Notes under the pieces: model-generated
Database searches by the model: none
What the model saw: only the letters and a program-made list of their open reading frames with translations
What the model was told of the DNA's origin: nothing
Translations under genes and position numbers: made by a program
Shown here: one piece after another, positions 10,268-21,032 of the stretch
How positions within the stretch are numbered: the first letter of the stretch is position 1
How the letters are laid out: each line of letters opens with the position of its first letter
Origin: a bacterium
Lineage (GTDB): Bacteria; CSSED10-310; JAJRTK01
Assembly (NCBI GenBank): GCA_024278345.1
Contig: JAJRTK010000138.1
Location: forward strand, 1-38,536
DNA: 38,536 nt
Reading direction: 5' to 3'

Positions 10268-10738
10268 ATGATGTCCAGAAAAAAAACAGAGCAAAATCCC
10301 GGGCAAATGGCATCCGAACCGGATTCGGGGATCTGGCGGGGGCGAGCCATCGCGGTCCGATTCGTTTCGCCAGACGGAATGACGATTCTCGTGGGACAGA
10401 ATGCCAGAGACAATGACCTCTTGACCCTGCGCCTCGCCCGGCCCGGCGATTTCTGGTTTCACATTGCCAGCGGGCCAGGTTCCCACGTCGTCGTCCGAAA
10501 TCAAGAGGGCTTGGCGCGTCTTCCCCGTTCCACACGGAACCTGGCGGCTTCCTTGGCCGCAAGATTTTCCAAGGCCCGTAGGGGAGGCCGAGTCGCCGTA
10601 CACCTGGCCCGGTGCAAGGACGTCAGAAAACCCCGCGGCTACGCTCCTGGCAAGGTCGTTTTGAAGCGTTTTGAAACGGTCCACGCCGCGCCGTTGGATG
10701 AGGCTCGTCTGGAAGAGCTCCGAAAAGCGGGATGCTAG
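10268..10738 (+). CDS. Stand-alone NFACT-R (DUF814) RNA-binding domain protein
   Basis: The product (about 156 residues) is essentially one NFACT-R domain, the C-terminal RNA-binding domain of RqcH/Rqc2/NEMF/Tae2 ribosome quality-control proteins. Diagnostic features are ILVGQNARDNDLLTLRLA, DFWFHIASGPGSHVVVR, the helix LAASLAARFSKARRGG, and the CKDVRKPRGYAPGKV motif. The NFN, HhH and coiled-coil parts of full RqcH are absent. It may bind tRNA or rRNA on stalled ribosomes, but the stand-alone role is not established. The start is uncertain: ATG at 10268 or 10271 is used, with no good ribosome-binding site; an upstream TTG at 10208 would place the start in the divergent grpE promoter. The stop lies within four bases of the end of the convergent P-domain gene. 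Confidence 0.8.
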   Translation: MMSRKKTEQNPGQMASEPDSGIWRGRAIAVRFVSPDGMTILVGQNARDNDLLTLRLARPGDFWFHIASGPGSHVVVRNQEGLARLPRSTRNLAASLAARFSKARRGGRVAVHLARCKDVRKPRGYAPGKVVLKRFETVHAAPLDEARLEELRKAGC

Positions 10739-13700
10739 AACTTTTTGCGCCGGGCCTGTCGCCGCCAGCCCATGGAGAAGAGGAGGGCGAGGAGGGCGCT
10801 GAGAATCCAGGCTCGGCCCTGGGCACTGGAGCCAACGGGCTGAAAAACCTTGGCGTTCGGGCCTGTGAGGGAGAGAGTCTGGTTGACGGCGAAAAGGGTC
10901 TCTCCGGCGATGAGAGGCCGTTTCGCCGTGATATTGCCCTTGCCCGTGGCGTCCGACAGACTCGTACCCAATGAATTAGGCGCGATGCCGGTCGCGGTGA
11001 AGAGCTCGACGGAACTCCCGGGGGGGGAAGAATTGCTGAACTGGACCAGACTTTGGCCGGCGAGGAGAGGTTCCATGAGCACCGGTGCTCCAGGCAGGGC
11101 CGTGGGCGTGGCCGTGGGACTCGGCGAGGGAGTAGGAGTGGCTGGTCCACGAACCGGGATCAAACACCATTCATCCAGTGTTCCGTCAAAGAGAAACTCC
11201 TGATCCGAAACGGTGACCCTCCAAGTTCCCGCCAGGCTCTCGTGGTGAAAGGAGGCAAGAGGGTTGTTGGGAATATAATGGGCGTTGTTGTCCGGAGGAC
11301 AGGCATCTTCCACCGCGCCACTGGTTCCTTCGTCGTCGAGAATCGCATGGATCGTTGGCTGGTCGCAACCGAAGTCGGGGTTCAGTCCCGGTTTTCCGAT
11401 CTGGTCGAAAAGGAGCACGCTGGTTCCGGTATCGAGGTGTTCCAGGGTGAAGACAAGATCACCAACCCATGGGTGCGAGATCTTCACCGAAAGATCGAGG
11501 TCGGCGATCAGTCCAGAAGCCGCGGTTGAGAGGTTGTCGCTGATGCCGGCGGGGAGGTTGTCCGGGATGGCCAAGCCCGGCACGCTACAGAGGATGGCTG
11601 CCGTCTGGAAGCTGTAAGTGGTGGAGGCAGGACCTTGGCCACAGGCGTTTTGGGGTCGGACGCGCCAGTAGAAGGTAGAGCTCGATGCAAGAGGAGTGGT
11701 GGGGGTGTAGGTGGTGGCCCTGACTTCGGCGGAGTCGATGATGTTAGCGAAGTTCGGGTCGTTGGCGACCTCGAGCTTGTAGCCGGAGGAGTCGCTGGTG
11801 GCCGACCATTGAAATACCGGGGAGAGAGAGCTGTCCACTGTCCCGTCCGGCGGCAGCAACAAAACGGTTGTGCCGGTGACGGGCTCGTGGAGTGTCAGGA
11901 TCGCTTGGTCAGTAGCTTCCACGGTGGTTCCGGGATTGTTGGGGTCGGGGCCGGAAGCCGTAACGGAGAGAACGTAGCTACCCAGAGGCATGCCAGTGGT
12001 CTTGGAGATGGTCAGAACACTCGTGTCTGTAGGAGTCATGGGGTTGGGAAAAAAAGTGACGGCGGTTCCCGCCGGCTCTCCCACAAGACTTAGGGTGACC
12101 GTCTCAGAATAGCCGCCCAACGCAAGGACCTTTGCGCTATAGGTCGCATCGGATCCCCGGCAGATGTCGAGGTCGGATGGCTCCAGGTCAAGAGCCAGGC
12201 CAGGTGTTCCGCAGCTATCGAACCGAAACGCGGCGATGCGGGTGGCCCATTGGCTGGAAGGGCTGTACAGATGTGTGAACCAGAACGTGCAGTCATCAGT
12301 GGGATCAACGCTCATGGCACTGTAGTCGCCCCATCGGTTGACGCTATTGGCGGCCGCTCCCGCTGCGACGGTTACCTCGGGTTGGGGGAGGGTTCCGGGC
12401 GTGTCGCTGGCCAGCCGCCCGGTGTAGCCGATGCTTGGGAAGGTCGAAGAGCCGGAGATGCTGTAGCCCAGGGCAAGATTACCGCTTCCATCCATGGCGA
12501 TGCTGCCCATCCAGCGGTGATCGGTGTCGGGAGCATACGTCCCCTCCTGCTCCAGGGACCATGAACCGCCGCCACTCTTTCTGAGCTCGAACCAGCGAAC
12601 ACCGCCGTGATCGGCGCCGTTCACGTCGGTGACCAAGTTCCCCACCAGGGTTTCGTAAGCGCCGAAGTTACGATACTGGGCTCGCCACATGACGACTTCT
12701 CGCACCGGATCGAGGAGCACGATGGTACCGGGCATGGGAAAGCACTCGTAAGAGCTGAGGCCGCACAGATCGGAATCGAATTCGGTGACCGGTATCGAGG
12801 AAGCCAGGGCAAAGGTCGAATTGGCCGGCGTTGCCCAATCCACTGACATGGTCCAAACCTCAATAAAATCGCGGTTCGGGTCGTTGGTGCTGGCGTTGTG
12901 GACCTCGTCGTCACGATGGCGGACGAAGTAGGCAGGAGCTCCGGATGGCGGGGCCAAGGGGCCATCGTGATCTCCCGGTGTGAAGGCCTGAAACCCGAAG
13001 CCGGCGAGGACCGACCCAGTGAGGCGCTGCACGCTCATGGCCCCGCCGTTGAGCATCTGGGTTCGCTCCAGTGCGTAGACCGGGGGGGTCCCTTCGTTGC
13101 TGGAGATATAATAACCGTCGGGCCAGACAGCGTACTTGGGATAATCGGGGAAACCAGGGGCCTGGATGGAGTAGCCGTACCAACCGCCAGAAATCGGGTC
13201 GCCGGTTTTGGAGACGTAGACGCAGAGCCGGTTGTCCGTCGTTGAAAACTCGCTCAAGAGCCACCTGTCCGCCAGGTCGTCGTAGAGGACCACTGGATCG
13301 CCTAGTCCGTTGGCGCAGGCGCCGCCGGAAGTCCAGAGGCTTGACAGGAGCAGGGGGCCGGCGGCAAGAGTGCCATCGTTCTTATTGCGGATCGTCAGGC
13401 GTGCCCCCGACGAGCTGTTGAGCATCTGAATGTAGTAGTTGGCGCCGACGTCCCCCATGGTGTCTGGAGGGTCCGCACCGGAGTACCCCTGTCCCGCGAA
13501 ATTCAAAGAGGGCGTGGTGAAGGTGCGGTCCCGAACGGATCGACTCCGAGCTGCTTCCTGAAGAGGCAGGAGGCGGTCTCGGATCCAGGTGGTAGGGTTT
13601 GCCGGTGGCCCGGGAGGCTCGTAGTCTGTGCGCCGGTTTTTCCGGTCGCGCACCTGCTTGACGGGATCGCCCGCCTTCCAGACTGGAGCGGCGGGCAATC

Positions 13701-13896
13701 TTCTGAGATCGACTTCGAGGTCCGCTGCCCAAAAGAGGCCGAACGATTGGGCGCCGCGAAAGATGACCTCCTGTCCGCCTGCCGCCAACAAGGAAGGAGG
13801 CAAGAGGAAAAAGAGAGCTAGGAAAGCGGCGGCCAGAATGTGCGGCTTTCCCGCTCTTTTGCTTTTTCGGCTGGCGCCCTCGGAAAGTCGGTTCAT
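10735..13896 (-). CDS. Large exported surface protein with P-domain and C-terminal anchor
   Basis: A 1053-residue protein with a signal peptide (about residues 18-39, ILAAAFLALFFLLPPSLLAA). A large beta-rich region (about 100-560) with repeated Trp/Gly/Asp motifs looks like an extracellular propeller-type fold without recognised catalytic residues. Immunoglobulin- or Fn3-like domains follow (about 570-790, such as PVFQWSATSDSSGYKLEV), then a proprotein-convertase P-domain (about 795-930; AIPDNLPAGISDNLSTAA, GDLVFTLEHL, GTWRVTVSD), a Pro/Thr linker (PTPSPSPTATP), and a C-terminal hydrophobic helix followed by Arg/Lys (RRQARRKKF). The last part resembles bacterial C-terminal sorting signals of the MYXO/PEP-CTERM type. 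No protease domain is seen. It follows the SPFH gene by 21 bases, so co-transcription is likely. The start at 13896 has only a weak upstream GGAT. Confidence 0.7.
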   Translation of the reverse strand: MNRLSEGASRKSKRAGKPHILAAAFLALFFLLPPSLLAAGGQEVIFRGAQSFGLFWAADLEVDLRRLPAAPVWKAGDPVKQVRDRKNRRTDYEPPGPPANPTTWIRDRLLPLQEAARSRSVRDRTFTTPSLNFAGQGYSGADPPDTMGDVGANYYIQMLNSSSGARLTIRNKNDGTLAAGPLLLSSLWTSGGACANGLGDPVVLYDDLADRWLLSEFSTTDNRLCVYVSKTGDPISGGWYGYSIQAPGFPDYPKYAVWPDGYYISSNEGTPPVYALERTQMLNGGAMSVQRLTGSVLAGFGFQAFTPGDHDGPLAPPSGAPAYFVRHRDDEVHNASTNDPNRDFIEVWTMSVDWATPANSTFALASSIPVTEFDSDLCGLSSYECFPMPGTIVLLDPVREVVMWRAQYRNFGAYETLVGNLVTDVNGADHGGVRWFELRKSGGGSWSLEQEGTYAPDTDHRWMGSIAMDGSGNLALGYSISGSSTFPSIGYTGRLASDTPGTLPQPEVTVAAGAAANSVNRWGDYSAMSVDPTDDCTFWFTHLYSPSSQWATRIAAFRFDSCGTPGLALDLEPSDLDICRGSDATYSAKVLALGGYSETVTLSLVGEPAGTAVTFFPNPMTPTDTSVLTISKTTGMPLGSYVLSVTASGPDPNNPGTTVEATDQAILTLHEPVTGTTVLLLPPDGTVDSSLSPVFQWSATSDSSGYKLEVANDPNFANIIDSAEVRATTYTPTTPLASSSTFYWRVRPQNACGQGPASTTYSFQTAAILCSVPGLAIPDNLPAGISDNLSTAASGLIADLDLSVKISHPWVGDLVFTLEHLDTGTSVLLFDQIGKPGLNPDFGCDQPTIHAILDDEGTSGAVEDACPPDNNAHYIPNNPLASFHHESLAGTWRVTVSDQEFLFDGTLDEWCLIPVRGPATPTPSPSPTATPTALPGAPVLMEPLLAGQSLVQFSNSSPPGSSVELFTATGIAPNSLGTSLSDATGKGNITAKRPLIAGETLFAVNQTLSLTGPNAKVFQPVGSSAQGRAWILSALLALLFSMGWRRQARRKKF

Positions 13897-13917: not shown

Positions 13918-15855
13918 TCAGGGGGATGGAGGACCCGGAGCCTGAACGAACGGCTTGGTTTCGAGGTTCCCGAGGTCAGAGTTGGCAAACCTTTCCAGCC
14001 GTTCGATGGCAAGGAGCTGTAGGATGAGCTCTTGTCCAGTCAGATCGCCTTGTCCGGCTCCGCCACCACCGCTAACCACAATTTTCGGCACCAGGTGTGG
14101 GTTGGAAGCCCAGATCTTCATGACATCGGTCCAAGCTCGGAGTTTCTTATCCAGTGCCCCGTCTGCCCGGATGAGTTGGTTTGCCTCATAGGCCTTGGCA
14201 TCGGCGATGGCTTTGATGCCTTGGGCCTCGAGTTTTTGTCTTGCCAGGATCTCCTCCTGTTTTTCCCGTTCGATGGCCGCGACTTCCTTGAGCTGCTCGG
14301 CCTTGATTTTGGCGACCTCCTTTTCCCGGTTCGCTTGGGTTTCCGCGACCTTTTTTTCCGTTTCCGCCTGCACCACTCTTCGCCGTTGCTCGATCTTTTC
14401 GTGTTCTTCGGCCAGCATGGCTTCCGATTCGGCTTGGCGCTGCTTTTCCTCGTTGGTCTTTTGCATCAAGAGCGCGACTTCCCGTTCTTTGAGAGGTTTG
14501 GCCACCTCTTCCGGGGGCTCGACTTCGCGAACGAGGGCCTTGTGGATGACGATCCCCTTTTCGGCGCAGACCTTTTTGAGCATGTCGGAGAAGTTTTGGA
14601 CGAACTGCTCCCGCTTGTCGCCCTTGATGAACTCTTCAGCCTTGAGTTTGGAGCCCTCTAGGCGACCGATAGCTCTGGCGTTGGGGCGAAGGACCTTCCG
14701 GACGATTTCGGGAGTGTTGCCGATGGAGGCGACGACTTCCGGAATGCGGTTGGTTTGGATTTGCCATTCGATGGAGGTATCGACCTTGATGGTGAAGCCA
14801 TCGGCGGAGGGGAAGGCAATCCGGTCGTCACCGGCCACTTCCCCGGTGTCGAGCGTCGTGTCCATTTGGGACATCTCGTACTTCTGGGTTCGTGTGTCCA
14901 CGCTGATGACTTTGAATTCATAGGGATTGATATAGTGGAGGCCGGCGGGGAGGGTGTAGGGTTGGACGCCTCGTTCACCGCGGGCCACCACGATGGCGTT
15001 GGCGACCTTGGGCGGCTTCCCGGTTCGCCGGACCACGACCCCGACGAAGCCCGCGTCGATTTGGACGGCGGGGTGGATGGCGACGGAATAGCCTTTGGTG
15101 TTCATGTAGTGCGTGCCGGGGCGAAGGACCTCGCGCCAGACGCCTCGTTCCCCTTTTTCCACCAGATCGTCGTTGGAAGGCCTTCCTGTCTTGGAGGTCA
15201 CGACGCCCATTTGTCCCGCGGGAATTTGGATGGCATCGACGATTTTCACTTTCTTGATGTAGGGATTCAGGAAAACGGCCCCCGGCGTGATGACCTCGCG
15301 CTGAATTCCACGTTCTCCCGTTTCCACGAGGATGTCGCCTGGGTTCTTGGGGTCCTTGCCCACCATGCGGGTGACGATGCCCATTTTGCCGGCCGGGATG
15401 GTGGTGATTGGGGTGACTTCAACGTCATACATGTAGGGGTTGAGAAAGTGGACGCCGGAGTTGAGGAATTTTCGTTGGATACCTCGTTCTCCATCCTCGA
15501 CGACGGTACTGTCAGGATTCTTGGGGGTCTTGCCCACTTTGAGCTTCAGGATGCCGATAGAACCCGCCGGAATTGTCGTAGCCGGAAGGATCTTGACGTC
15601 ATTGATGGGATTGATGATGTGGTAGCCGGTGGTGAGCACTTCGCGCTGCACGCCGGCATAGCCGGAGTCAGGGGCGACGATCTTGCCCTTGGGGAGGTTC
15701 TTGCCGGTCTTTTTGATGACAATTGCCACGTGATTCGCCGGAACGCTTACCAAGCACTTCATGAGAATCGACAAAAAGATGATACCGCCGATGGCAACAA
15801 GGACGGTCATCACCTTGACCTTGTTACTCACTCCGAAACTTTCGAGTTTTGCCAT
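13918..15855 (-). CDS. Membrane-anchored SPFH/band-7 protein with five tandem beta modules
   Basis: A 645-residue protein with one N-terminal membrane helix (about 14-36) followed by five repeats of 55-58 residues: about 38-94, 95-152, 153-210, 211-265 and 266-321. Each begins with IPAG-x-x-G(I/V)V and carries GERG(I/V)QREV and PG-x-HFLNPY. These look like repeats of the first strand-rich module of the SPFH domain. The last leads into a full SPFH domain (about 266-450) and then a long coiled coil (450-570, rich in Glu, Lys, Gln, Ala) with a Gly-rich C-terminus. SPFH proteins (flotillin, HflK/C, stomatin) assemble into membrane-attached cages, and the module-SPFH-coil order recalls major vault protein. 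The cellular role is unknown. ATG at 15855 has AAGGGA upstream; a longer start at 15951 is less likely. Confidence 0.82.
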   Translation of the reverse strand: MAKLESFGVSNKVKVMTVLVAIGGIIFLSILMKCLVSVPANHVAIVIKKTGKNLPKGKIVAPDSGYAGVQREVLTTGYHIINPINDVKILPATTIPAGSIGILKLKVGKTPKNPDSTVVEDGERGIQRKFLNSGVHFLNPYMYDVEVTPITTIPAGKMGIVTRMVGKDPKNPGDILVETGERGIQREVITPGAVFLNPYIKKVKIVDAIQIPAGQMGVVTSKTGRPSNDDLVEKGERGVWREVLRPGTHYMNTKGYSVAIHPAVQIDAGFVGVVVRRTGKPPKVANAIVVARGERGVQPYTLPAGLHYINPYEFKVISVDTRTQKYEMSQMDTTLDTGEVAGDDRIAFPSADGFTIKVDTSIEWQIQTNRIPEVVASIGNTPEIVRKVLRPNARAIGRLEGSKLKAEEFIKGDKREQFVQNFSDMLKKVCAEKGIVIHKALVREVEPPEEVAKPLKEREVALLMQKTNEEKQRQAESEAMLAEEHEKIEQRRRVVQAETEKKVAETQANREKEVAKIKAEQLKEVAAIEREKQEEILARQKLEAQGIKAIADAKAYEANQLIRADGALDKKLRAWTDVMKIWASNPHLVPKIVVSGGGGAGQGDLTGQELILQLLAIERLERFANSDLGNLETKPFVQAPGPPSP

Positions 15856-16131
15856 GTTGTTTCCCTTGCAGGATTGTGGAGCAGATTCGGGGCCGCTTGA
15901 ATGTCCAACCGCCGGGGCGGCCGATGGGGACGGGAGAGCAGGCCTTGACACCGCTTCCTGAAATAAAATCGGGTCTAGGCAACCTCAGTTCACCACAATG
16001 GCTTGCCCTCCTACAAGCGCATATCATTTCGGGTGAGCTTCTCTTCGCGGTTCGATCGTGCTATGGCTCGTTTTCAGAGGGGTTTCCATGAGGTGTGACG
16101 TGTCCTTCTTGGGGAAAGAGGTGGTGTCCTG

Positions 16132-16815: not shown

Positions 16816-18027
16816 TTGGGTTTTTTTGAATTCGTCGTCGCCATCACGGCAATATCCATTATGGGAAGTGTCATCAAGGCGATTTTCACCGAGCGCCGAG
16901 ACAAGCGGAGGCTCGAGCAGAAAATCAGACTGGCGCAGCTTCAGACAGGCTTGGCATTGCCCGAGGCCAGTGGCGGCGAGTTGAAACAGCTTCAGTCTAA
17001 GGTCGAGGTGATCGAAAGGGATCGCCGCACACTGGAGCGGCGGCTCGAGCAGGTGGAGACCATCGTGACCTCGCCCTCCAGAGAGCTGAACCTTCGCCTT
17101 GAACGACTTCTTTCCAGCCCCGCGGCACCGGCTTTCGCGGCCGGAGGTTCGGAAGTGGCCACATTGCCGCCCCATTCCCTCTTGTCCGGGCAGCTCGGGT
17201 TTGCCGCTCCCAGCCGCGTTGGAGAGCTCTTTGCCGATCGCTACCAGCTTCTTTCCGAGTTGGGGAGAGGCGGCATGGGGGTCGTCTATAAGGCTCGCGA
17301 TACCCGCTTGGACCAGATGGTGACCCTCAAAGTGCTTTCGCCTCTTGTGGCGAGTGATCCCAAGGCATGGGAACGCTTTCGCCACGAGGCCTCCGCCACC
17401 CGAAGCATCGATCACCCCAATGTCATCCGGATCTACGATCTGGGCGAGGAGGCGAACGAGCCGTACATCTCCATGGAGTTCTTCCCCAGCATCGACCTCA
17501 AGAGCCGGCTACAGCAACTTGGACCCTTGCCGCAGCCCGAGTGTCTTCGCATCGCGGAGGCAGTGGCCCGGGGGATCCAAGCGGCCCACGATCTCGGGGT
17601 CATCCACCGGGATCTCAAGCCCCAGAACATCCTTTTTGGACGGCAGGGCCGCATCAAGGTCATCGACTTTGGATTGGCCAAAAGCTCCCTCATGGCAGGG
17701 CTCACCATGTCTGGCTTCATCCTGGGGACGCCCCAATACATGAGCCCGGAGTAGGTGCAAGGCCAGGAGATCGACCGCCGGAGCGACATCTATTCCTTTG
17801 GCGTCGTTGCCTACGAGCTCCGGAGTAACCGGCTGCCGTTCGCCGGCACCACGGCGATTGAACTCGCCTTCAAGACCGTGCATCAAGAGCCATTGCCTTT
17901 GGAATCACTGGCTGGTGACACCACCAAGGAGTATGGGGATCTGGTGGAGCGGTGTCTGCAGAAAAAGCCTCAAGCTCGGTATCAGACCATGACCGAGGTT
18001 CTGAGCGCTCTTGAAATCAGCAACTAG
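16816..18027 (+). pseudogene. Ser/Thr protein kinase interrupted by in-frame TAG
   Basis: A PknB-type kinase gene of 403 codons broken by one amber codon at 17752-17754. The N-terminus has a membrane helix (about 5-22) and a coiled coil (30-90). The kinase domain (about 140-400) keeps the glycine loop (ELGRGGMGVVYKA), Lys172, HRDLKPQN (Asp266) and DFG (Asp284). The stop falls after PQYMSPE, where homologues have Gln, so it is a CAG-to-TAG change. Beyond it the same frame encodes an intact kinase C-lobe (RRSDIYSFGVVAYEL, then about 60 more conserved residues) to TAG at 18027. Without readthrough the 312-residue product lacks helices F to I and should be inactive. TTG at 16816 has AGGAG upstream. 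Amber suppression, a sequencing error or a recent nonsense mutation are all possible; other genes here end in TAG, so global recoding is unlikely. Confidence 0.85.
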
Positions 18028-18581: not shown

Positions 18582-18653
18582 GGTTTGCCGGCAGAAACCG
18601 CGGGGGGAATCGATTCTGCTTGTCCGCGGTTGGACGGGCTTTGGAGGAAGAGC

Positions 18654-21032
18654 GTGGGTTTATTTACCGGAATGCAGAGGCGGCGCCTGGAGAACAAGCT
18701 CCAGGCTGATCCGGAGAATCCGGAACACTACACAAGACTAGCGGACCTCCTTCGGAAGCAGGGAGACTTGGACGGGGCGGTGGCGGTCTTGGGTCGAGGC
18801 CTTCTCCGGCCAGTGCCGCCAGCCGCCGCCCAAGGATTGCTCTCCCTCCTCGACAACTGGGTTCGAATGGTGGGCGTGGATATTGAGGCGGCGGCGAAGA
18901 GACTGGGCGAGTCCCTATCGAAGGCAGAGCTTCCTCATGCCGCGGAACTCTTGGCTCGCTTGGAATCCCTGATGGTTCGTCAGTTCGCCTTGGATCCGGA
19001 TCGGGCAAACGATCATCGTCGCCGCCAATTGGAGTTTGCGGCGGAGGCCATGGCTTTTTCACAGCGGCCCTGGGTGCGCCTATTGCTGGCGCAGGCCGAG
19101 CTAGGCTCTCTTTCCAGCGGGCCCGAGATCGATATCGCCGCTTCCGCGCTCTCCGGGCTGGAGCCCATGGGCCAAGATCCCATCTTTGATGGGGACCTGC
19201 TCTTGGCCATCGGTGACCTCGAGAGACTTTCTGGCCGTGTCGCCGAGGCGTCCGCGGCGTACGAGCGGGCATCGCGAACATACCAGGATCCTCTTGGCCT
19301 TGCTGAATCCCGTATCCGCCTTGGGCGGGCACTCCAGAAAAAGGGCGATCCATCTCGGGCAATCGAGCAGTTTTCATCAGCCTTGAACTATCTGGGCAAT
19401 CGCCCGGAGGTGGCGTGGATTCATGCGGAGCTGGCTCGCCTCTACGCCTCCCGGAACCGAGTCGATGACGCGCGAAGGGAGATCAGCACCGCGCTTTCCA
19501 GCCCTTATCTCGGGCCACGGGAAAAGGTCGATCTCTCCCTTTTGGAGGCGGAAATCCTCCATACTCAGCACCAGCTCGATGCCTCCATCAGTGCCACCCG
19601 CAGATCCGTCGAGCTTGCCGACAAACCGCACCAGCGCCGAAAGGCGCACCGCTTCCTGGCTCATCTGCTCACCCTGAAGGATGGTGGCTTGGAGGAAGCC
19701 ATCGAGCTTTACCGAGCCATGCTGGAGGCGGTCGTTCCCGATGACGAGCGCCAGGTGAGGATTGGCCTTGGCCGGGCTCTCATCCTCAAGAACGACTACA
19801 AGGCCGCCATCGAGGTCTTCGAGCCTCTGGAACGGGACAGGCCCGTTCCGGGGATGTCGGTTCCCGACATCCATCTCTTGGTGGCCGAAGCTCAGTTCGG
19901 GTCCGGCTGTCCCCGCCGTGGTCTCGAGATTCTCGAAGAGCTCAAGAGGACGGATCCCGCCGCCGAAGAGGTCGTGGAAGAGCGTGCCCGGAAATTTCGC
20001 CGGGATCTCGATGCGGGGCGCGTCGAAGGCCTGATATCCCCCGACGTACGCAAGGACTTGGAAGAGAGTCTCTCCCGCCTTGTAGGGAAAGCGGCACTCC
20101 TAGAGAGGCTGCGCCTTCGGTTGGCCCGGTCCAGGGAATCCTTGGTGGGCCGCCTGGAGCGGCTGGTTTCCGGTGGCCGAGCCGTGGACGAAGATCTCCT
20201 GGACGACGTGGAAGAGCTCTTGATCACAGCCGACGTCGGTGTTCAGACTACTTTTGGAATGATGGAGCCACTTCGAAGAAAGGTCGCTCGTGGTCGGATC
20301 GAAAACTCCCAGGCTCTCTTCCAAGAGCTCAAAGGGTTGATGCTCGGCATCTTGCGGGGGAGCGCGGCCTCTCTGAAGCTCCGGCCCCAAGGTCCCACGT
20401 TCATCCTGGTCGTGGGCGTGAACGGTGCCGGCAAGACCACAACCATCGCCAAGCTGGCTCACCGGTTCAAGGAGGAGGAGAAGAAGGTCCTCCTGGTGGC
20501 TGGCGACACTTTTCGGGCGGGCGCCATCGAGCAGCTCCAGATTTGGGCCGATCGCGTGGGGGTTCCGCTCATCCGGCAGGCGGCGGGCTCCGATCCGGGC
20601 GCCGTCGTGTTCGACGGGGCAAAGGCCGCCCTCTCCAGGCGCGTCGATGTCGTCATCGTGGATACGGCGGGTCGGCTTCAGACCAAGGTCAACCTCATGG
20701 AAGAGCTCAAGAAGCTTGCGCGAATCCTGGGCCGGCAGGCCGAGGGTGCGCCCCACGAAGTCCTCCTGGTCCTGGACGGGACTACGGGGCAAAATGCCCT
20801 TTCGCAGGCGAAGCTCTTCTCCGAGGCGGTTCCTGTCACTGGTATCGTGCTCACCAAGCTCGACGGGTCATCCAAGGGGGGCACCATCCTTTCCATTGCC
20901 CATCAAATGGGTTTGCCCATCAAGCTCATCGGAATTGGCGAGCGGATGACCGACCTCCGGGACTTCGATCCCGATCTGTTCGTGGACGCCCTGTTCGGAG
21001 AACCAAACCGCCAATCGTCGGATGCTCCCTAA
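18654..21032 (+). CDS. ftsY: FtsY SRP receptor with large TPR N-terminal domain
   Basis: FtsY is the signal-recognition-particle receptor GTPase that docks Ffh-ribosome complexes at the membrane for co-translational insertion. The C-terminal NG domain (about 480-785) has all G-motifs: GVNGAGKTTT (588-597, the FtsY form), DTFRAGAIEQL, DTAGR, TKLDGSSKGG, and GIGERMTDLRDFDP. In place of the usual acidic A domain the protein has about 475 residues of tetratricopeptide-like helix repeats (for example HYTRLADLLRKQGDLDGAVAVL, RKAHRFLAHLLTLKDGGLEEA, and RIGLGRALILKNDYKAAIEVF). The start is set at GTG 18654, with GGAGG seven bases upstream; TTG 18585 has no ribosome-binding site. The protein is about 792 residues, against 300-500 in most bacteria. 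No Ffh gene is nearby. Confidence 0.92.
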   Translation: MGLFTGMQRRRLENKLQADPENPEHYTRLADLLRKQGDLDGAVAVLGRGLLRPVPPAAAQGLLSLLDNWVRMVGVDIEAAAKRLGESLSKAELPHAAELLARLESLMVRQFALDPDRANDHRRRQLEFAAEAMAFSQRPWVRLLLAQAELGSLSSGPEIDIAASALSGLEPMGQDPIFDGDLLLAIGDLERLSGRVAEASAAYERASRTYQDPLGLAESRIRLGRALQKKGDPSRAIEQFSSALNYLGNRPEVAWIHAELARLYASRNRVDDARREISTALSSPYLGPREKVDLSLLEAEILHTQHQLDASISATRRSVELADKPHQRRKAHRFLAHLLTLKDGGLEEAIELYRAMLEAVVPDDERQVRIGLGRALILKNDYKAAIEVFEPLERDRPVPGMSVPDIHLLVAEAQFGSGCPRRGLEILEELKRTDPAAEEVVEERARKFRRDLDAGRVEGLISPDVRKDLEESLSRLVGKAALLERLRLRLARSRESLVGRLERLVSGGRAVDEDLLDDVEELLITADVGVQTTFGMMEPLRRKVARGRIENSQALFQELKGLMLGILRGSAASLKLRPQGPTFILVVGVNGAGKTTTIAKLAHRFKEEEKKVLLVAGDTFRAGAIEQLQIWADRVGVPLIRQAAGSDPGAVVFDGAKAALSRRVDVVIVDTAGRLQTKVNLMEELKKLARILGRQAEGAPHEVLLVLDGTTGQNALSQAKLFSEAVPVTGIVLTKLDGSSKGGTILSIAHQMGLPIKLIGIGERMTDLRDFDPDLFVDALFGEPNRQSSDAP

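What the first reader, a model, noticed from the sequence alone, without database searches (positions are those of the whole stretch)
13918..15855. SPFH protein with five tandem beta-modules, a vault-like layout
The sequence directly shows five repeats of 55-58 residues, each with IPAG-x-x-G(I/V)V, GERG-(I/V)-QREV and PG-x-HFLNPY, before a single SPFH domain and a long coiled coil, all behind one membrane helix. SPFH proteins normally have one such module before the helical coil. Known SPFH assemblies form membrane cages, and major vault protein has repeat-SPFH-helix order. A stack of modules would predict a tall barrel on the membrane.
Basis: partly seen in the sequence, partly recalled or inferred. 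Interest (0 to 1): 0.78.

Follow-up and report, generated by a model that had tools for sequence, protein, structure and literature searches.

The report
Membrane-anchored, vault-like SPFH repeat protein
This bacterial gene encodes a protein that is held in the membrane and carries a stack of five copies of a small building block which, in predicted shape, matches the wall of the eukaryotic vault particle; it belongs to a large, unstudied group found in many bacteria and giant phages.

Summary
The minus-strand ORF 15855-13918 (645 aa) has one membrane helix, five tandem 55-58-aa modules (aa 38-323), an SPFH core and a long coiled coil. One correction: module 5 is the SPFH1 half of the SPFH domain itself, so there are four extra copies. 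AlphaFold2 gives all five modules the same five-strand fold at high confidence. The best Foldseek hits in the PDB are major vault protein (MVP). The modules alone match the MVP R1-R7 crystals. The chain from module 2 to the coil aligns co-linearly with MVP 273-721. No sequence-level homology to MVP repeats was found. The protein is not a lone oddity: 549 pattern-matched stretches in sequenced genomes, 58 viral contigs (many from giant phages) and 11 of 290 sampled bacterial genomes encode relatives, usually with four modules and all with a hydrophobic segment in front (145/145). The window belongs to a smaller compact clade with 3 to 6 modules, where copy number changes by recent duplication. 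Papers I could search call MVP domains unique to the vault and do not mention this family. Best reading: a membrane-tethered half-vault-like SPFH cage subunit, about 23 per ring. Ring and function are inferred.

The parts
13918..15855 (-). Gene for a 645-aa multi-module SPFH protein (stop codon at 13918-13920)
   Evidence: ORF and translation; Pfam Band_7 3e-28
15862..15867 (-). Probable ribosome-binding site AAGGGA ahead of the ATG at 15855
   Evidence: sequence
15754..15828 (-). N-terminal membrane helix, aa 10-34
   Evidence: AF2 helix 10-34; Kyte-Doolittle mean 2.59 over 19 aa; all 145 proteins tested have one
15574..15744 (-). Beta-module 1, aa 38-94
   Evidence: module HMM; pLDDT blocks 83-96
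15400..15573 (-). Beta-module 2, aa 95-152
   Evidence: module HMM; pLDDT blocks mostly 76-96
15226..15399 (-). Beta-module 3, aa 153-210
   Evidence: module HMM; pLDDT blocks 77-97
15061..15225 (-). Beta-module 4, aa 211-265
   Evidence: module HMM; pLDDT blocks 87-97
14887..15060 (-). Beta-module 5, aa 266-323, which is also the SPFH1 subdomain of the SPFH domain
   Evidence: Band_7 hit begins at 265; stomatin SPFH domain aligns over aa 263-448; pLDDT blocks 81-96 in the second model
14512..14886 (-). SPFH2 subdomain, aa 324-448
   Evidence: Pfam Band_7 265-479; stomatin SPFH crystals Z 12-13, rmsd 1.9-2.7
14293..14511 (-). CC1 long helix, aa 449-521 (73 residues)
   Evidence: AF2
13981..14256 (-). 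C-terminal cap region: helices aa 534-564, 570-584, 608-625 (low confidence)
   Evidence: AF2

Best explanation
This is a subunit of a membrane-anchored SPFH cage in which the SPFH1 beta-subdomain has been duplicated in tandem, so that four extra modules stand between the membrane helix and the SPFH ring. Laterally packed subunits would form a ring of stacked beta-modules (the wall), closed by the SPFH2/coiled-coil dome: a half-vault-like chamber standing on the membrane, where MVP instead pairs two halves. It would act as a diffusion barrier or sequestering chamber over a patch of membrane, with extra height for membrane proteins with large extramembrane parts. Shown: the repeats, their homology to each other, the SPFH domain, the hydrophobic segment, and the relatives with 3-6 modules. 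Predicted: the module fold, its identity with SPFH1 and likeness to MVP repeats, and co-linearity with MVP. Inferred only: ring assembly, about 23 subunits, and the chamber function.
For: Band_7 domain. Five modules well above chance and recovered by an independent HMM. AF2 gives the modules the same E3-E7-E7-E3-E7 pattern at high pLDDT. Foldseek top hits in the PDB are MVP at E 2e-16 to 1e-11. MVP R1-R7 crystals match the modules alone, E 7e-6 and Z 10.9 over 184 residues at rmsd 4.6. MVP 273-721 aligns with window aa 92-522, Z 12.3 over 353 residues. Module 5 + SPFH2 align with stomatin, prohibitin and erlin, which are known ring-formers, Z 12-16. A hydrophobic segment precedes module 1 in 145/145 proteins. 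The published relation between CC1 length and copy number (N = 0.1782 x length + 10.22, PMC12624060) gives about 23 for 73 residues. Module number varies 3-6 in the compact clade, with 56-69% identity between modules 3-5 of G242.
Against: No oligomer could be predicted; ring and copy number rest on analogy. rmsd over the MVP-length alignment is about 10 A, so wall curvature or module stacking differs. pTM is only 0.54-0.57 and the C-terminal cap is poorly predicted. Gene neighbours are not conserved, so nothing points to a specific cargo. The side of the membrane is unclear for this protein: net charge is +2 on both flanks.
Confidence: 0.6

Rival explanations
1. Ordinary flotillin-like SPFH scaffold: the extra modules are a passive spacer or stalk that sets the distance from the membrane without forming a continuous wall, and the function is that of ordinary SPFH microdomain scaffolds.
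For: The only Pfam domain is Band_7; relatives are annotated 'flotillin family protein'; module number varies within one family (5 and 6), as expected of a spacer.
Against: Modules are conserved and similar to the SPFH1 layer that packs laterally in known cages; the match to the MVP wall is co-linear.
Confidence: 0.22
2. A true relative of MVP: bacterial and phage multi-module SPFH proteins and the eukaryotic vault share a multi-module ancestor (this is about descent and can hold together with the best explanation).
For: MVP is the best PDB fold match and the domain order is the same.
Against: No sequence-level match to MVP repeats: no Pfam vault model was hit, and MVP appears only through its coiled coil at E 4.7. 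Modules could have multiplied separately from SPFH1 in each lineage, as they visibly still do in G242.
Confidence: 0.25
3. A nucleotide- or NAD-linked cage: the stacked modules or shoulder bind ADP-ribose or NAD as the vault shoulder does, and phages use it with NAD salvage.
For: In a phage lineage the gene lies directly downstream of a NAMPT/NAPRTase gene and upstream of a deoxyribosyltransferase-like gene, with NADAR and PRPP synthetase-like genes near (27 of 58 loci hold the NAPRTase). The vault shoulder binds ADP-ribose and TEP1 is an NADase (PMC13174449).
Against: The neighbourhood belongs largely to one phage lineage (13 of 40 clusters at 90% identity, 2 of 17 at 80%) and was not seen around bacterial copies. 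No binding residues were tested. Nothing of the kind lies next to the window gene.
Confidence: 0.08

Closest known systems
Four-module 'flotillin family' SPFH proteins of Bacteroidota, Rhizobium and giant phages (unnamed group; e.g. WP_012555099.1)
   Same: Same order: membrane segment, tandem modules, SPFH2, coiled coil; one module HMM finds all
   Different: Usually four modules of 60-75 aa with inserts; the window has five compact ones and shares only 22-34% identity
Major vault protein (MVP)
   Same: Repeat - SPFH - long helix order; predicted module fold matches MVP R domains; co-linear alignment with MVP 273-721
   Different: MVP has nine repeats, no membrane helix, 39-fold half-shells joined at the N-terminus (PMC13100048, PMC12624060), and no detectable sequence homology in the repeats
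Prohibitin, erlin, stomatin, HflK/C, QmcA cages
   Same: N-terminal membrane anchor, SPFH1+SPFH2, CC1 helix; Z 10-16
   Different: They have a single SPFH1 module
Predicted vault protein of Borg elements (PMC12660748)
   Same: Also a structure-predicted vault-like protein outside eukaryotes
   Different: Mentioned there only in passing; not compared here

Membership tests
SPFH / Band 7 superfamily | SPFH (Band_7) domain | tested here: met
   Pfam PF01145 E 3e-28, cutoff passed; stomatin SPFH crystals Z 12-13, rmsd 1.9-2.7
SPFH / Band 7 superfamily | N-terminal membrane anchor | tested here: met
   hydrophobic aa 18-36 and AF2 helix 10-34
SPFH / Band 7 superfamily | C-terminal coiled coil after the SPFH domain | tested here: met
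   helix 449-521
SPFH / Band 7 superfamily | assembly into a closed ring or cage | not testable with these tools
   no oligomer prediction was available; CC1 length suggests about 23 copies (PMC12624060)
Major vault protein | order: tandem beta-repeats, SPFH shoulder, long helix | tested here: met
   co-linear VIA alignment aa 92-522 with MVP 273-721, Z 12.3, 353 residues, rmsd 10.2
Major vault protein | fold of the MVP R repeats | tested here: met
   predicted modules against MVP R1-R7 crystals: Z 10.9, 184 residues, rmsd 4.6; Foldseek E 7e-6
Major vault protein | sequence match to Pfam vault-repeat models | tested here: not met
   none at E up to 10 for modules 1-4 or E up to 1 for the whole protein
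Major vault protein | soluble half-shells joined at the N-terminus (no membrane helix) | tested here: not met
   an N-terminal membrane helix is present
HflK/HflC | match to NCBIfam HflK/HflC models | tested here: not met
   no SPFH-family NCBIfam model at E up to 1
Flotillin (with C-terminal flotillin domain) or stomatin with NfeD partner | flotillin C-terminal Pfam domain; NfeD gene next door | tested here: not met
   only Band_7 in Pfam; neighbours are DnaJ, GrpE, NFACT-R, a secreted P-domain protein and a kinase

The most novel reading that the evidence does not exclude
Multi-module SPFH proteins are a widespread prokaryotic and phage counterpart of the vault: membrane-tethered half-vaults that share ancestry with MVP and, as the phage gene clusters hint, a tie to NAD or ADP-ribose metabolism. 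The vault would then be the soluble, dimerised, eukaryotic member of an old family.
Probability: 0.15. Interest if true: 0.88.

Novelty: new variant of a known kind. Interest (0 to 1): 0.6.

Why it matters
The vault is large, abundant and of unknown function, and the recent literature calls its MVP domains unique to it and its lack of a membrane anchor exceptional (PMC13100048, PMC12624060). A large, unstudied bacterial and phage family combining vault-like module stacks with a membrane anchor would make the origin of the vault and its membrane association testable in culturable bacteria such as Chryseobacterium or Chitinophaga. It would also show that SPFH cages can grow in height by simple module duplication, which is visible in progress in the 5- and 6-module relatives.

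Tried and rejected
Chance repeats: rejected by shuffles. Single-species oddity: rejected by genome, phage and viral-contig searches. Sequence proof that the modules equal SPFH1 of ordinary SPFH proteins: profile-profile comparison was weak (probability 9%, P 0.004), and the module HMM did not hit E. coli HflK or QmcA; that link rests on Pfam boundaries and structure. Sequence proof of MVP kinship: not found. Functional clues from neighbours: none conserved beyond genus level in bacteria, none in the compact clade. A viral-contig scan with the protein alone, and one with the modules alone, found nothing. The first AF2 model had a poor module 5 because four-module relatives were aligned to modules 1-4; re-registering the alignment fixed it. 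A split-fragment alignment failed.

Full report
WHAT IS THERE. The gene is on the minus strand, ATG at 15855, stop at 13918, 645 residues, with a plausible ribosome-binding site. Pfam finds only Band_7 (aa 265-479, E 3e-28); NCBIfam finds no SPFH model. Five modules of 55-58 aa lie at aa 38-323. The repeat signal is far beyond chance (score 185 against a shuffle maximum of -36). A module profile trained on other proteins only recovers all five. The fifth module coincides with the start of Band_7, and the model aligns aa 263-448 with the stomatin SPFH domain, so it is the protein's own SPFH1. The extra copies number four.

STRUCTURE. Two AlphaFold2 models were made. The first (full length) gives the membrane helix and modules 1-4 at high pLDDT. 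The second (aa 92-645, with the alignment in the right register) gives modules 2-5, SPFH2 and most of CC1 at high pLDDT. The modules show the same strand pattern. For the second model MVP is again first, with prohibitin close behind. With VIA-align, MVP 273-721 aligns co-linearly with aa 92-522 (353 residues, Z 12.3, rmsd 10.2), and modules 2-5 alone align with the MVP R1-R7 crystal (184 residues, Z 10.9, rmsd 4.6). By Z-score alone, prohibitin and erlin rank above MVP because they cover the SPFH part very well. The large rmsd over the whole MVP span shows that the overall curvature is not the same. Sequence profiles find SPFH proteins (QmcA, prohibitin, flotillin-2), not MVP repeats.

FAMILY. 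Searching outward from the window protein gave relatives in Rhizobium plasmids (annotated 'flotillin family protein'), in Ackermannviridae Vibrio phages and a 642-kb phage, in 57 IMG/VR contigs, many over 200 kb, and in at least 549 pattern-matched stretches of sequenced genomes, of which the best 80 are mostly Bacteroidota with Acidobacteriota, Armatimonadota, Pseudomonadota, Ignavibacteriota and Neomarinimicrobiota. In a broad sample of 290 bacterial genomes, 11 had a match. Of 149 ORFs hit by the module profile (the window gene counted in three overlapping loci), 137 have four modules. All 145 with three or more modules have a hydrophobic segment just before module 1. A tree of the SPFH core puts the window in a compact clade with G242 (six modules) and two pairs of adjacent three-module genes (L077, G279), support 96/80, though several branches there are long. 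Within the family of G242 the copy number is 5 (G291) or 6 (G242), and modules 3-5 of G242 are 56-69% identical, so duplication is recent. Within the window's own eight-genome phylum, one other genome has a four-module member (G006); no multi-module member was found in the rest.

HOW IT PROBABLY WORKS. Known SPFH proteins with this core assemble into membrane-standing cages (PMC12624060). Their published relation between CC1 length and copy number (N = 0.1782 x length + 10.22) gives about 23 subunits for a 73-residue CC1. In MVP the repeats form the wall. The simplest mechanism is therefore a membrane-tethered half-vault: membrane helix, five layers of beta-modules, SPFH2 ring, coiled-coil dome. 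It would enclose a membrane patch with more headroom than an ordinary SPFH cage. Everything from the ring onward is inference. Side of the membrane: over all 145 proteins (mostly four-module) flanking charges average -0.4 before and +1.2 after the helix, favouring a cytoplasmic body; for the window protein both sides are +2, so this is open.

A LEAD OUTSIDE THE WINDOW. In one group of large phages the four-module gene sits directly after a NAMPT/NAPRTase gene and before a deoxyribosyltransferase-like gene, with PRPP synthetase-like and NADAR genes near (27 of 58 loci hold the NAPRTase). It is largely one phage lineage (13 of 40 clusters at 90% identity, 2 of 17 at 80%) and was not seen near bacterial copies. 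The vault shoulder binds ADP-ribose and vaults contain an NADase, TEP1 (PMC13174449). The parallel is suggestive and no more.

WHAT IS KNOWN. A survey of prokaryotic SPFH proteins lists twelve subfamilies, and the passages I read mention no tandem modules (PMC2636767; its supplement was not readable). [quoted passage not shown] Borg elements carry a predicted vault protein (PMC12660748). A survey of phage NAD systems does not mention prohibitin, stomatin, flotillin or vault (PMC9503650). Only open-access papers were searchable, so prior description elsewhere cannot be excluded.

VERDICT. Observation confirmed with one correction. The vault-like reading is supported at the level of predicted fold and domain order, not of sequence homology or assembly. 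The protein is a compact five-module member of a widespread, uncharacterised SPFH group.

Noticed in passing
L004 (own genome, C257), about aa 100-490 of a 759-aa ORF: Another SPFH protein in the same genome looks by eye to have about seven different short tandem modules (pattern G..GLL..DGK...L.PG.H..W) and no obvious membrane helix; the module profile of the window family does not detect it. A possible soluble vault-like protein.
   Followed up: partly
IMG/VR loci L026-L036, L044, L047, L057, L063-L065 and others: Phage gene order PRPP synthetase-like - HAD-like - NAMPT/NAPRTase - multi-module SPFH - deoxyribosyltransferase-like, with NADAR nearby.
   Followed up: partly
window 16816-18027 (+): Ser/Thr kinase ORF interrupted by an in-frame TAG at 17752-17754, between Pkinase profile positions 167 and 170 (MSPE*VQGQ); nonsense mutation, assembly error or readthrough.
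   Followed up: no
window 18651-21029 (+): FtsY-like SRP54 GTPase with a long N-terminal TPR region of almost 500 residues, an unusual fusion.
   Followed up: no
window 10735-13896 (-): A 1053-aa probable secreted protein (P-domain, C-terminal hydrophobic-plus-basic tail) starts 21 bases after the SPFH gene on the same strand and may be co-transcribed.
   Followed up: no
L077 292-2178 and 2175-3905; G279:C1 (L179 5021-8390): Pairs of adjacent or overlapping three-module SPFH genes, suggesting hetero-oligomers like HflK/HflC.
   Followed up: partly
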